Shown piece by piece: positions 27,909 through 31,389 of a stretch of 64,000 nucleotides of DNA. Origin of the DNA: Sphaerisporangium corydalis (lineage in GTDB: Bacteria > Actinomycetota > Actinomycetes > Streptosporangiales > Streptosporangiaceae); the NCBI RefSeq assembly GCF_025506355.1, contig NZ_JANZYP010000007.1, positions 62,001-126,000 of the forward strand, in the 5' to 3' direction. Below the pieces are notes generated by a model. It was given only the letters and a program-made list of their open reading frames with translations. It did no database searches and was not told the origin of the DNA. The position numbers and the translations under genes are program-made. The stretch's first letter is position 1. Each line of letters opens with the position of its first letter.

Positions 27909-28312
27909 AGACCCTGGGGCTTCTCGGCAGTGTCCATCTCCCGGGTAGAACCGAGTCGGTCGGGGTGGCTCGGGCGTATGTGCGTCTGCTGCTGCACGTG
28001 GCGGCGTCTTGGGATGTTGATCGGGTTGAGTTACTGGTCAGTGAGCTGGTGGCGAACGCGATTCAGCATTCGGAGTCGGGACGTCGGGCGGGTGGGCTGG
28101 TAGAGCTGGTGCTGAGCGAGACCGGTCATGCCTTGCGCGTCGATGTGATCGATGAGGGCTCGGTGAATCGCATCCCGCAAATTCCCGAGCAGGTGGATCC
28201 GCTGAGCGAGGGCGGCCGTGGGCTGTGGCTGGTCGCGCAACAGTCCTCGGCTTGGGGATGGGCGGAAGACCAAGCAGGGCGGGTCGTGTGGTTCGAGGTC
28301 GCACGATCATGA
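27905..28312 (+). CDS. HATPase_c_2 ATP-binding protein
   Basis: A 135-residue GHKL ATP-binding domain. The N-box is LLVSELVANAIQHS (residues ~41-54), followed by VDVIDEGS as the G1-like motif and GGRGLWLVAQQSSAWGW as G2. It resembles the second such protein at 16979 but belongs to a different subgroup. It starts at GTG 27905 inside the stop of the small upstream gene. Location, just before the peptide/methyltransferase pair and divergent from XRE/DUF397, suggests it helps regulate this island. Confidence 0.87.
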   Translation: MKTLGLLGSVHLPGRTESVGVARAYVRLLLHVAASWDVDRVELLVSELVANAIQHSESGRRAGGLVELVLSETGHALRVDVIDEGSVNRIPQIPEQVDPLSEGGRGLWLVAQQSSAWGWAEDQAGRVVWFEVARS

Positions 28313-28446
28313 TCACTCTCGGGCCATTAGGAGTCCTGTTCTCTTCCGATCACCGCTGGGATCGGCGCCGGGAGTTTTTCTTCCAGTAAAATATGATTTC
28401 TATGCCCGAGTCTGCGCAGATGGCAGAGCGGACATCTCTTAAAGTC

Positions 28447-28475
28447 TTGTCGGGTTCTGTTGGTCGATTTACGAT
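28447..28475 (+). promoter_or_regulatory. Promoter of the peptide/methyltransferase pair
   Basis: -35 TTGTCG (28447-28452), a 17-bp spacer and -10 TACGAT (28470-28475) in an A+T-rich stretch. Predicted start is near 28482. The ~45-nt leader ends in GAAGGAGA, 8 nt before the TTG start of the peptide gene. It separates this pair from the HATPase gene transcriptionally. Confidence 0.65.
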
Positions 28476-28525
28476 CGTCGGTAAGTTGAGCCAACATAAA
28501 GCACAGGCCGGAAGGAGATCGATCA

Positions 28526-28642
28526 TTGGGCAAGCATGATGGTGATAAGCCATCGGACAAGCCGGTGGAGAAGCCGAAACCGAACTCGGATGGAGCTCGC
28601 CCCGATCGGCCTGGCCAGCATGAGAAGCCGGGGAAGAAGTGA
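28526..28642 (+). CDS. Putative imiditide-type RiPP precursor peptide
   Basis: A 38-residue peptide starting at TTG 28526, with a strong GAAGGAGA site 8 nt upstream. It has 8 Lys, 7 Pro, 5 Asp, 2 Glu, 2 Arg and 2 His but no Cys, Thr or aromatic residue. KP dipeptides recur (DKPSDKPVEKPKP), followed by NSDGARPDRPG and a basic end EKPGKK. Two Asp-Gly steps, Asp5-Gly6 and Asp22-Gly23, are favourable for aspartimide formation. The TGA overlaps the GTG of the methyltransferase gene (28639-28642), so the two are translationally coupled. This is the arrangement known for imiditides: linear charged precursor plus PIMT-like methyltransferase. No search was run. Confidence 0.68.
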   Translation: MGKHDGDKPSDKPVEKPKPNSDGARPDRPGQHEKPGKK

Positions 28643-29781
28643 GCGCTGATCAGCGGGTCACGGCCCTTGCTGATCAAATGACGGACCTGGCCGAGAGTTG
28701 GCGGGTCGTGTTTCACGCTGTACCGCGTCATTTGTTCGTTCCAGACAGGGCTTGGTGTGATTGTGCCGACGGCCCTGGATATCTCATTGACCGGGGGGCC
28801 GATCCTGAGGCGTGGATGGACGCCGTGTATTCCGACGCGGCGATCGTCACGCAGCTCGACGACGGCGCGACCGAGATAGCGGAGGGGAAGGGTGACTACA
28901 CTTCTTCGTCGTCCGCGCCGGCCGTCGTGGCGGCGGCTTTGGGGTTGCTCGATCCCTATGATGGCGACGAGGTCTTGGAGATCGGCACGGGCACCGGCTG
29001 GACGGCCGGATTACTGGCGCATCGTCTCGGGGACGAGAGCGTGACCAGTGTCGAAATCGATCAGGCCGTGTTCACCGCAGCCTCCGAGAACCTGAAAAGG
29101 GCCGGATACGCCCCCCGGCTGATTCTCGGGAACGGATCCGAGGGATGGGCCGAAGTCGCGCCGTACGACCGGGTACACGTCACCTGTGGCGTATGTGAGG
29201 TGCCGTATGCGTGGGTGGAACAGACCCGTCCCGGCGGGGTGATCGTGCTCCCGTGGACGCCTCGGTGGGAAGGCGGCTACCTGACCCTGCTCACGGTGGT
29301 CGGAGATGGCACCGCCGTAGGAAGGTTCCACGGTGGCGTCGGGTTCATGCTGCTTCGGTCGCAGCGATGGGAGCTTCCTCAGCTTGAGGGAAACTATCGG
29401 AAGTCCTCGACCTACCTTGATCCGCGTCGGGTGGTGCGGGCCCCGGCGGGGGCCGCTGTCGCCGTGGCCGGACTGCTGCCGGATGTGTACGGCGCACATG
29501 CGGATCAGGAGGGCGGCGAATTCCATTTGTCACTGTGGTCGGAGGAGTCTGACGCTCAGGTCCACTACGCGCCCGATTACAAGGCCGTGGCGGTCCTGCA
29601 GCGGGGGCCGCGCAATCTGTGGGACGAGGTGGCGGCCGCTTATCTGCGGTGGCTCTCCTGGGGGGCGCCGTCCAAAGACCGGTTCGGGATGACGGTCACC
29701 CGCGGAGGCCAACACATTTGGCTGGACTCTCCAGACAACTCGATCACGGCTGTTAACAGGCACGCTGAACAGGCTGAATAG
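28639..29781 (+). CDS. PIMT-like O-methyltransferase of the RiPP-associated (aspartimide-forming) class
   Basis: A 380-residue protein homologous to protein-L-isoaspartate methyltransferases. The N-terminal part has VFHAVPRHLFVPDRAW and GDYTSSSSAPAVVAAAL. The SAM-binding motif I VLEIGTGTGWTAG is at residues ~113-125, with VTSVEIDQAVF after it. It is ~150 residues longer than repair PIMTs. Its C-terminus holds DRFGMTVTRGGQHIWLD (~347-363), like the extension found in methyltransferases that act on lanthipeptides, graspetides and imiditides. Those enzymes methylate an Asp side chain, which then cyclises to aspartimide. Coupled to the 38-residue peptide gene; no ATP-grasp, lanthionine or lasso gene is nearby, so the peptide is probably the direct substrate. 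Confidence 0.82.
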   Translation: MSADQRVTALADQMTDLAESWRVVFHAVPRHLFVPDRAWCDCADGPGYLIDRGADPEAWMDAVYSDAAIVTQLDDGATEIAEGKGDYTSSSSAPAVVAAALGLLDPYDGDEVLEIGTGTGWTAGLLAHRLGDESVTSVEIDQAVFTAASENLKRAGYAPRLILGNGSEGWAEVAPYDRVHVTCGVCEVPYAWVEQTRPGGVIVLPWTPRWEGGYLTLLTVVGDGTAVGRFHGGVGFMLLRSQRWELPQLEGNYRKSSTYLDPRRVVRAPAGAAVAVAGLLPDVYGAHADQEGGEFHLSLWSEESDAQVHYAPDYKAVAVLQRGPRNLWDEVAAAYLRWLSWGAPSKDRFGMTVTRGGQHIWLDSPDNSITAVNRHAEQAE

Positions 29782-29918
29782 ATGGTCGGGCACCCCGTGA
29801 GAGACCCGGGCGGCGACATCCGGATCGCTGTTCCCGGGGTGTTGCCGACGAGTTCTCCGATCATTTGGAGGGTGTGAGCCGTCTCGCGGGTCGCCGATGG
29901 GTGGGCGCGGTCGTACCC

Positions 29919-30387
29919 GGGCTCGGCGCCGCATGAGGCGCCGGATTCGCCGTTCTCCTGTCCCGTCGCGTCGGCGCCCAGTTCACGAGCATACGGCCGG
30001 GGGGATACGAGCCTGCGCAGGTCAAGGGGGTGGCGGAGGTCGTGGTGCGGGAGTCGAGGTTGGGGCGATCGGTAGGGCCGTGGGCGGGGGGTGGAGTGGG
30101 TCGGCAGGGCCGGTAGGCCGTGGGAAAACGCCCGAGCCGAAGGCGAGGACCATTTCCGCCGGGCTCGGCGCCGCATAAGGCGTTCGCCGTACTCCCGTCC
30201 CGTCGCGTCGGCGCCCAGTTCACGAGCATACGGCCGGGGGGATACGAGCCTGCGCAGGTCAAGGGGGTGGCGGAGGTCGTGGTGCGGGGGTCAGAGTGGG
30301 TCGGCGGAGCCGCGTGCGGGGTCGGAGTGGGTCGGCAGGGCCGGTAGGCCATGGGAAAACGCCCGAGCCGAAGGCGAGGACCTTTCC
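29919..30387 (-). repeat. Right copies of the ~230-bp intergenic repeat, inverted
   Basis: Two tandem units in reverse orientation to those at 25991-26252: 30387 down to 30158 (230 bp) and 30157 down to about 29919 (~239 bp). They are ~90% identical to one another over the shared block CGGCGCCCAGTTCACGAGC / ATACGGCCGGGGGGATACG and the block GCCCGAGCCGAAGGCGAGG. With the left copies they bracket 26253-29918. The remaining bases of the 29782-30432 gap show no gene. Confidence 0.82.
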
Positions 30388-30432
30388 GCCGATCGCGTCC
30401 TTCAAGGCATCGCACCCCCCGATTGATCGCGG

Positions 30433-31389
30433 TCAGAATGTGGCGATCGGGTTGACCGGGCTGCCGGACGTGCCGGCGAAGCGGACCGGTGCGACCGTGA
30501 GGTGGAAGTCCCACTGGCCGAGTTCGGCGGCCGTCGCCGCGCAGGCCTCCAGGTCGCAGTTGTCGAGCAGCCACAGACCCATCGCGACGAGGCTCACGGC
30601 GTGGACCGGCATCAGCACGTCGTCGTACCCCGACGGCTGAACGTCCTGGGGGGTGTCGGCGCCGATCATCGCGACCTCCCGTTCACGCAGCCATGGCAGG
30701 CAGGACGCGTGCCAGCCGGCCTGCGTGAAACCGCCGGCATAACCCGCCTCGTGCCGGACGCGGCCATAGCCGGTCCGCAGGAGTACCGCGTCGCCGGATC
30801 GCACCCGCACACCCTGGCGACGCTCGGCCTCCTCCAGGTCCTCGGGGAACACACCCTGCCCCGGTTCCAGCCACGGCACGTCGCGGGCCCTCGCGATGTC
30901 CAGCAGGACGCCACGCGTGATGATCCCGTTCGCCGCCGCCGTGACGGCCGCCCACGCCGATCCCGTCGCGGGGTCGACCAGTGAGTGCGACCGCCCGTTG
31001 TACATCGTGCCGTCCCAGAAGATGTGGCACGGCGAGTCGAGGTGGGTGAGGGTGTTGCCGTGGAACGTGATGCCGAGCCGCTCGGACGAAAAGCCCCAGC
31101 GCCGGTCGGCGTGGAATGCGGGCACCGGCATGTTCTCGGCACCCGGCATGTCGGCGGCGCACGGGCACGTCGTCGTCGACCGCTCCATGTCCTCCGGTAC
31201 GGCGACCTCCCACGCGCACGACACGCTCCTGCCGTGGCGCACGGCCCGCGCGGCCGTCAGCCGGACGTCGTCGGTGATGTGGTTCAGAGTGCCGAGCTCG
31301 TCGTCGTCGCCCCACCGCCCCCAGTTCGACAGCGTGTCGAAGTACCCGAGCACGTCGTCCTGCGTGGGCATCGGTCGCCCTGCCGTCAT
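30433..31389 (-). CDS. Cyclase family protein (kynurenine formamidase-like metal hydrolase)
   Basis: A 318-residue member of the cyclase/metal-dependent hydrolase family. The metal-binding motif HGNTLTHLDSPCH (HxGTHxDxPxH type) lies near residue 108-120, and MIGADTPQDVQP follows. The opening SNWGRWGDDDELGTLNHIT is typical of the large actinobacterial/proteobacterial cyclase subgroup. It probably hydrolyses an amide or ring-opens a cyclic compound. A paralogue lies at 33820. ATG 31389 has GGAGGAG 11 nt upstream; ATG 31371 is an alternative. Confidence 0.8.
   Translation of the reverse strand: MTAGRPMPTQDDVLGYFDTLSNWGRWGDDDELGTLNHITDDVRLTAARAVRHGRSVSCAWEVAVPEDMERSTTTCPCAADMPGAENMPVPAFHADRRWGFSSERLGITFHGNTLTHLDSPCHIFWDGTMYNGRSHSLVDPATGSAWAAVTAAANGIITRGVLLDIARARDVPWLEPGQGVFPEDLEEAERRQGVRVRSGDAVLLRTGYGRVRHEAGYAGGFTQAGWHASCLPWLREREVAMIGADTPQDVQPSGYDDVLMPVHAVSLVAMGLWLLDNCDLEACAATAAELGQWDFHLTVAPVRFAGTSGSPVNPIATF

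What the first reader, a model, noticed from the sequence alone, without database searches (positions are those of the whole stretch)
28526..29781. Two-gene imiditide-type RiPP candidate: Lys/Pro/Asp peptide coupled to a PIMT-like methyltransferase
A 38-residue charged peptide with no Cys and two Asp-Gly steps (Asp5-Gly6, Asp22-Gly23) overlaps, by GTGA, a 380-residue PIMT homologue. The enzyme carries the C-terminal extension (DRFGMTVTRGGQHIWLD) of RiPP-modifying methyltransferases. It has its own good promoter (TTGTCG-17-TACGAT) and ribosome site. Known imiditides (founder NmaA/NmaM of Nonomuraea maritima) have this two-gene layout and gain an aspartimide. The KP-repeat sequence here may be a new subfamily. 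The peptide gene is short and TTG-started, so automatic annotation would probably miss it.
Basis: partly seen in the sequence, partly recalled or inferred. Interest (0 to 1): 0.88.

Follow-up and report, generated by a model that had tools for sequence, protein, structure and literature searches.

The report
Two-gene aspartimide peptide locus (imiditide)
An actinobacterium carries a tiny Lys/Pro-rich peptide gene that overlaps the gene of an enzyme which probably turns one aspartate of that peptide into a reactive ring; this class is already known, but comparing relatives points to which residue is changed and shows that some relatives carry an asparagine there instead.

Summary
A 38-codon TTG-started ORF (28526-28642) overlaps by GTGA a 380-aa PIMT-like methyltransferase (28639-29781). 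The peptide is a real gene: dN/dS is 0.10 against its nearest relative, and 119 of 199 homologous methyltransferases have such an ORF upstream by my criterion, against 0/199 in each of two controls. The enzyme has the WXXXGXP motif and extra C-terminal domain described for RiPP-modifying PAMTs. No ATP-grasp gene was found on its contig. It is a new member of a published class (type I pamtides = imiditides), not a new kind. Residue 5 is Asp in only 16 of 119 peptides. Asp22 is the likelier target, 8 residues before a C-terminal Gly-X-His, a spacing seen across the class: Asp or Asn at -7/-8 in 42 of 61, 0 of 2000 shuffles. The proposed promoter scores below the scan's threshold. Unreported as far as I could read: in two or three lineages Asn-Gly replaces Asp-Gly at this site, kept by selection in one. 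Four of five type II precursors found share the MGKH start. The chemistry is inferred, not shown.

The parts
28526..28642 (+). Precursor peptide gene, 38 aa, TTG start: MGKHDGDKPSDKPVEKPKPNSDGARPDRPGQHEKPGKK
   Evidence: like peptides in relatives; dN/dS 0.10 against L002
28639..29781 (+). PIMT-type aspartyl O-methyltransferase (PAMT), 380 aa, GTG start overlapping the peptide stop by GTGA
   Evidence: Pfam PCMT 1.7e-27; best NCBIfam model TIGR04188, 303.7 bits, below its cut-off of 380; AlphaFold2 pLDDT 92.5, top PDB match 1dl5
28589..28594 (+). Codons of Asp22-Gly23, the likely modified site
   Evidence: aligned Asp-Gly in L002, L053, L004, L058, L056, L059, L155, Asp-Glu in L055, Asn-Gly in L005, L060, L061; 8 residues before the C-terminal Gly-X-His
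28613..28621 (+). C-terminal Gly30-Gln31-His32, probable enzyme-recognition tail (inferred); the codons after it also hold a likely ribosome site for the methyltransferase
   Evidence: 61 of 119 peptides have a C-terminal GxH; a short tail is what remains in L003, L057 and L006
28529..28537 (+). N-terminal Gly-Lys-His right after the start codon
   Evidence: His at residue 4 in 76 of 119 peptides, start chosen by ribosome site; shared with four of five type II precursors found
28512..28517 (+). Ribosome-binding site AAGGAG, 8 nt before the TTG
   Evidence: read
29398..29781 (+). Extra C-terminal domain of the enzyme (from residue 254), with an acidic stretch SEESD (301-305) and the motif WLSWGAP (338-344)
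   Evidence: W338, G342, P344 invariant in 22 aligned sequences; WXXXGXP in 173 of 199; fold

Best explanation
This is a type I pamtide (imiditide) locus. The peptide is made first; its last codons carry the ribosome site of the enzyme gene, so the two are probably translated together. The methyltransferase binds the peptide's tail with its extra C-terminal domain, places Asp22, eight residues upstream of Gly-Gln-His, in the active site and methylates its side chain. The ester then closes without further help onto the amide of Gly23 to give an aspartimide, which slowly opens to isoAsp/Asp. Shown here: the gene pair, selection on the peptide, the enzyme family and domain, the motif, the spacing rule. 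Inferred: translational coupling, tail recognition, methylation, ring formation, export and function.
For: Peptide ORF under purifying selection. Peptide upstream of 119/199 methyltransferases, controls 0/199 and 0/199. Peptide types follow the enzyme tree, by eye. Enzyme: PCMT domain, nearest named model TIGR04188, extra C-terminal domain in the order Lee 2023 describe, WXXXGXP. A locus whose peptide has ITVTSDGK at residues 19-26, as printed for the experimentally studied FcaA, has an enzyme 42.7% identical to this one and the same MGKH start. Position of Asp22: Asp counts peak at -6 to -8 from the C-terminal GxH in 61 peptides; Asp or Asn at -7/-8 in 42 against a shuffle mean of 17.9, 0 of 2000; after clustering at 50% identity, Asp in 17 of 28 against 6.5, 0 of 2000. 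In the window's 20-row clade 12 of the 15 rows with a peptide fit. Removing the last 10 residues of NmaA, or changing the last 5 of SpaA to Ala, harms modification (review), as a tail-based ruler predicts.
Against: No chemistry was tested. 80 of 199 homologous enzymes had no such peptide by my criterion, and five of 20 in the window's clade keep the enzyme while the peptide is lost or degraded, so the enzyme may have other substrates; Lee 2023 also leave 3653 PAMTs without a partner. 19 of 61 GxH peptides have neither Asp nor Asn at -7/-8 (several have Asp at -6), and 58 of 119 peptides lack a C-terminal GxH. [quoted passage not shown] TIGR04188 is below its cut-off. L175's only Asp is followed by Pro and cannot form an aspartimide.
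Confidence: 0.82

Rival explanations
1. The enzyme is a general isoAsp repair or protein methyltransferase, and the small ORF is a translational-coupling leader that helps its expression; the peptide is not the substrate.
For: Close relatives keep the enzyme with the peptide lost except for its last codons, which hold the likely ribosome site (L003, L057, L006).
Against: The whole peptide, not only its tail, is under selection (dN/dS 0.10); composition and Asp spacing recur in many peptides. E. coli-type repair PIMTs lack the extra C-terminal domain, though T. maritima PIMT has one.
Confidence: 0.1
2. Auxiliary enzyme of a graspetide (ATP-grasp) system whose other genes are elsewhere; the peptide is first cross-linked and then modified.
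For: The best NCBIfam model is TIGR04188, the graspetide-associated methyltransferase; the genome has an ATP-grasp gene over cut-off on contig C140.
Against: That ATP-grasp gene lies next to its own PAMT fragment at a contig end. No TIGR04187 match on the window's contig C130. The peptide has no Thr and is only 38 residues long.
Confidence: 0.04
3. The product is a metal-binding peptide: after Met removal the N-terminus Gly-Lys-His is an ATCUN Cu(II)/Ni(II) site (motif recalled, from no call), and the C-terminal Gly-X-His may help close a loop that presents Asp22, as zinc does in type II precursors. This could hold together with the main explanation.
For: His at residue 4 in 76 of 119 peptides against 2.9% His elsewhere; 24 of the 39 peptides with a single possible start have it. 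MGKH also starts four of five zinc-ribbon type II precursors found.
Against: 43 of 119 lack His at residue 4 (20 of 42 after clustering at 50% identity); some keep the motif behind a short N-terminal extension, so it may be recognition rather than metal binding. The listed assay mix for SpaA held no added metal, and NmaA without its first 20 residues was still modified, at lower level.
Confidence: 0.15

Closest known systems
Type I pamtides / imiditides (SpaA/SpaM of Streptomyces sparsogenes; NmaA/NmaM of Nonomuraea maritima)
   Same: Two-gene layout, short Gly/Pro/Asp/Lys-rich precursor without Cys, PAMT with extra C-terminal domain and WXXXGXP, no other RiPP enzyme seen near it
   Different: Likely modified residue followed by Gly (by His in NmaA); 38 residues against about 45; acidic SEESD where NmaM is described with DEDGD (comparable place judged by eye); modification not shown
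Type II pamtides / cysimiditides (FcaA/FcaM)
   Same: MGKH start and homologous PAMT, 42.7% identical
   Different: No CxxCxGxG zinc ribbon; no Cys at all
Graspetide-associated methyltransferase TIGR04188 (group 13 graspetides)
   Same: Same enzyme family (303.7 bits)
   Different: Below the 380-bit cut-off; no ATP-grasp match on the contig
Thermotoga maritima PIMT (1DL5)
   Same: Best PDB match of the model; has an extra C-terminal domain
   Different: 21% identity, TM-score 0.55 and rmsd 7.7 over the whole chain

Membership tests
Type I pamtide / imiditide | Two-gene cluster: small precursor directly beside a PAMT | tested here: met
[quoted passage not shown]
   strand 254-258, helix in two pieces 262-279, four strands 284-322, helix 327-340, then two more strands; description read
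Type I pamtide / imiditide | WXXXGXP motif in that domain | tested here: met
   WLSWGAP 338-344; 173 of 199 homologues
Type I pamtide / imiditide | Precursor about 45 aa, rich in Gly, Pro, Asp, Lys, without the zinc-ribbon cysteines | tested here: met
   38 aa with K8 P7 G5 D5, no Cys
Type I pamtide / imiditide | Conserved Asp near conserved Pro/Gly | tested here: met
   Asp22-Gly23; exceptions in the window's own 20-row clade: Asn in L005, L060, L061, no clear site in L007, L062, L128
Type I pamtide / imiditide | No primary enzyme of another RiPP class beside it | tested here: met
   16 ORFs between 22751 and 37419, the pair included, scanned with Pfam and 6 of them with NCBIfam: none such; no TIGR04187 match on C130. 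Not every ORF of the window was scanned.
Type I pamtide / imiditide | Methyl ester and aspartimide/isoAsp formed on the linear peptide | not testable with these tools
   needs mass spectrometry
Type II pamtide | Two CxxCxGxG motifs | tested here: not met
   no Cys in the peptide
Group 13 graspetide | ATP-grasp ligase in the cluster | tested here: not met
   3 TIGR04187 matches in the genome, on C140, C136 and C119; none on C130
Group 13 graspetide | TIGR04188 over its cut-off | tested here: not met
   303.7 against 380 bits
Canonical (E. coli-type) repair PIMT | Single catalytic domain without C-terminal extension | tested here: not met
   PCMT match is residues 87-232 of 380; C-terminal domain modelled

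The most novel reading that the evidence does not exclude
What selection keeps in this class is the succinimide/isoAsp at a fixed place, not the methylation of Asp itself. The enzyme measures 6-8 residues from a C-terminal Gly-X-His tail, and in at least two (probably three) lineages the site has become Asn-Gly, a dipeptide that forms the same succinimide by spontaneous deamidation; there the enzyme would act on the resulting isoAsp/Asp, like a repair PIMT captured for biosynthesis.
Probability: 0.3. Interest if true: 0.72.

Novelty: new member of a known kind. Interest (0 to 1): 0.45.

Why it matters
It adds a clear, compact imiditide pair in what is probably a Sphaerisporangium genome. It also gives the class testable rules: which Asp is modified (tail spacing), an MGKH start shared by type I and type II precursors, and natural Asn-Gly variants that separate 'methylation is needed' from 'the succinimide is needed'. 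The review of the class names the link to biological function as the bigger challenge.

Tried and rejected
Graspetide auxiliary role: rejected, no ATP-grasp match on the contig. Asp5-Gly6 as the modified site: rejected, residue 5 is Asp in 16 and Glu in 45 of 119; in the window's clade L002, L004 and L007 keep Asp. Sigma-70 promoter: below the scan's threshold; the upstream alignment shows no conserved -35, only TACGAT also in L002 and L005. Reading the Asn-Gly of the 'KNGHKP' peptides (L196, L209, L216, L225, L228, L230, L187) as the same event: set aside, because these peptides also keep Asp further along. L060/L061 are weaker cases: both keep an Asp at -6, and L060's N-terminal half is degraded. 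Strict ATCUN reading: 43 of 119 do not fit. Regulators as part of the system: only 3 of 80 named loci (L094, L100, L118) show the same HTH(-)/HATPase(+)/PAMT order. More members of the window's clade: a second query over the 341 genomes of the family listed only places already seen; a search of 54 genomes of the Asn-Gly genus listed five places, already known. The search scored only the best 5-6 candidates per genome and did not list all matches. The original imiditide paper (JACS 2023) is not held; its content is taken from the review.

Full report
What is there. The window holds a TTG-started 38-codon ORF at 28526-28642 and, overlapping it by GTGA, a 380-codon GTG-started ORF at 28639-29781. 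The peptide reads MGKHDGDKPSDKPVEKPKPNSDGARPDRPGQHEKPGKK. AAGGAG lies 8 nt before the TTG, and the peptide's last codons (GGGGAAGAA before GTG) offer a ribosome site for the enzyme. The proposed -35/-10 pair exists as letters but matches 8 of 12 consensus positions by my count; the scan, whose limit is 9, found no promoter in 28300-30450 (0.4 expected). Promoters of other types are not covered by it.

The peptide is a real gene. Against the nearest relative, L002 (enzyme 80% identical), 33 of 37 codons give the same residue with dN/dS 0.10; over 19 hand-chosen pairs pooled, pS is 0.31 and pN 0.067, single pairs ranging from 0.01 to 0.58 with two not computable. I compared 199 distinct homologous methyltransferases from the loci held by then: 119 have a polar, Gly/Pro/Asp/Lys/Glu/His-rich ORF of 24-75 codons ending between -200 and +90 of the enzyme start, 80 do not. 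The same criterion gave 0 of 199 on the antisense strand and 0 of 199 inside the enzyme gene. By eye, peptide types follow the branches of the enzyme tree (101 rows, quick method, SH-aLRT support only).

The enzyme. Pfam gives PCMT (1.7e-27). The best NCBIfam model is TIGR04188 with 303.7 bits, under its cut-off of 380. The AlphaFold2 model is confident (pLDDT 92.5, pTM 0.90), and its best PDB match is T. maritima PIMT, 1dl5 (E 4.5e-20, TM-score 0.55, rmsd 7.7, 21% identity). After the catalytic domain the model shows a strand, a helix in two pieces, four strands and a helix (254-340), then two more strands; Lee et al. [quoted passage not shown] W338, G342 and P344 of WXXXGXP (named in Zhu & Link 2026, PMC13001092, parts 1-3 of 5 read) are invariant in 22 aligned sequences, and the motif is found in 173 of 199 (105 of 119 with a peptide, 68 of 80 without).

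Not a graspetide accessory. The genome has three ATP-grasp (TIGR04187) matches, on contigs C140, C136 and C119, none on the window's contig C130. The one over cut-off sits beside its own PAMT fragment at a contig end; the other part is probably on C15. Of 16 ORFs scanned between 22751 and 37419 (the pair included), those with a Pfam match besides the enzyme are an HTH/DUF5753 regulator, a HATPase, a kinase, an isochorismatase-domain protein, two cyclase-domain proteins and an AMP-binding enzyme.

Which residue. Residue 5 is Asp in 16 and Glu in 45 of 119 peptides. At the place of Asp22 the near relatives L002, L053, L004, L058, L056, L059 and L155 have Asp-Gly and L055 Asp-Glu. A rule appears across the class: 61 of 119 peptides have a C-terminal Gly-X-His, and counting back from that Gly, Asp peaks at -7 (29), -8 (14) and -6 (13). 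Asp or Asn stands at -7/-8 in 42 of 61 (Asp alone 39), shuffles give 17.9 on average and none of 2000 reach 42. After clustering at 50% identity, Asp is at -7/-8 in 17 of 28 against 6.5 expected, 0 of 2000. Asp22 is at -8. In the window's 20-row clade 12 of the 15 rows with a peptide fit; L007, L062 and L128 do not. In L055 and L056 the aligned Asp is at -9 and a second Asp at -7. In L121 (Nonomuraea) the Asp at -7 is followed by His, as the review reports for the modified Asp of NmaA. That NmaA needs its last 10 (not its last 5) residues and SpaA its last 5 fits a tail-based ruler.

Asn in place of Asp. In L005 (a congener, enzyme 69% identical) the -8 residue is Asn, followed by Gly; the nearest Asp before the Gly-X-His is at -22, and another follows in the tail. 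In L061 and L060 Asn-Gly stands at -8 as well, but an Asp is present at -6. In five Nonomuraea-type loci (L070, L074, L159, L164, L087) Asn-Gly stands where related loci (L156-L158) have Asp-Gly; in the four that have a C-terminal Gly-X-His it lies at -5 and no Asp is nearer than -19. On the enzyme tree the fewest changes between Asp and Asn are 3 for 33 hand-assigned rows, or 2 without L060/L061; such counts give no direction, but the Asn rows lie inside Asp-bearing groups. All 8 Asn are followed by Gly; 18 of 25 Asp are, so this alone is weak. The Asn-Gly peptides of the Nonomuraea clade are not decaying: dN/dS is 0.11 for L070/L159 and for L074/L164. Three of the five in that clade have lost the Gly of WXXXGXP. 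Asn can form an aspartimide by spontaneous deamidation (stated; that Asn-Gly is the fastest such pair is recalled), and Lee et al. saw isoAsp at an Asn of SsfA in the sample without the methyltransferase. I found no mention of Asn at the modified site in the two papers (parts read, and term searches), nor did the listings of searches or the passages of PMC11285071 point to one; supplements and the original imiditide paper were not readable here, so this is not a claim of priority.

A shared start. With starts chosen by ribosome site, His stands at residue 4 in 76 of 119 peptides (24 of 39 with only one possible start); His elsewhere is 2.9%. After clustering at 50% identity it is 22 of 42. Of five zinc-ribbon (type II) precursors found, four (L239, L241, L242, L262) start MGKH and one (L261) MGKGKH. 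L262/L284 has ITVTSDGK exactly at residues 19-26, as printed for FcaA, so it is probably FcaA or nearly so; its enzyme is 42.7% identical to the window's. The start may thus be older than the split into types. After Met removal Gly-X-His could bind copper (ATCUN, recalled), but 43 of 119 do not fit, so this stays a rival idea; a search for papers with ATCUN and RiPP listed three with unrelated titles.

Loss. In the window's 20-row clade the enzyme outlives the peptide in L003 (only a tail ..RHEKPEAT left), L057 (an upstream frame now ends in EHETPQGK), L054 (peptide start joined in frame to the enzyme), L031 (own-genome paralogue, degraded) and L006 (tail only); L060 and L062 look partly degraded. 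The tail may persist because it carries the enzyme's ribosome site, or the enzymes may have other substrates.

Verdict. A well-supported new member of the type I pamtide/imiditide class. The chemistry at Asp22 is inferred. The unusual part is comparative: the spacing rule and the recurrent Asn-Gly. The genus is inferred as Sphaerisporangium because the congener contig G004:C88 has the length and match position of a named S. rufum contig.

Noticed in passing
window 29946-30055 and 30183-30292; 30087-30154 and 30318-30385: Direct repeats of 110 nt (97%) and 68 nt (94%) just downstream of the methyltransferase.
   Followed up: partly
L285 (G000 C140:1-6000) and L286 (C15:1-3000): A separate graspetide-type locus in the same genome, apparently split over contig ends: ATP-grasp gene over the TIGR04187 cut-off beside a PAMT fragment, the other PAMT part probably on C15.
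   Followed up: partly
L032 and L031 (own genome, C141 and C119): Two paralogous PAMTs: one with an intact, different precursor (MGKDDGKGGGG...), one with a degraded precursor.
   Followed up: partly
L175: Precursor whose only Asp is followed by Pro, which cannot form an aspartimide.
   Followed up: no
L161 (G078 C37): Two PAMT matches in tandem 26 nt apart, only the first with a recognised precursor.
   Followed up: no
L094, L100, L118: Same order as the window: HTH/DUF5753 on the minus strand, HATPase on the plus strand, then the PAMT; 3 of 80 named loci.
   Followed up: partly
L054: Natural in-frame joining of the precursor's first half to the methyltransferase, with the peptide core and the enzyme's first 27 residues missing.
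   Followed up: no
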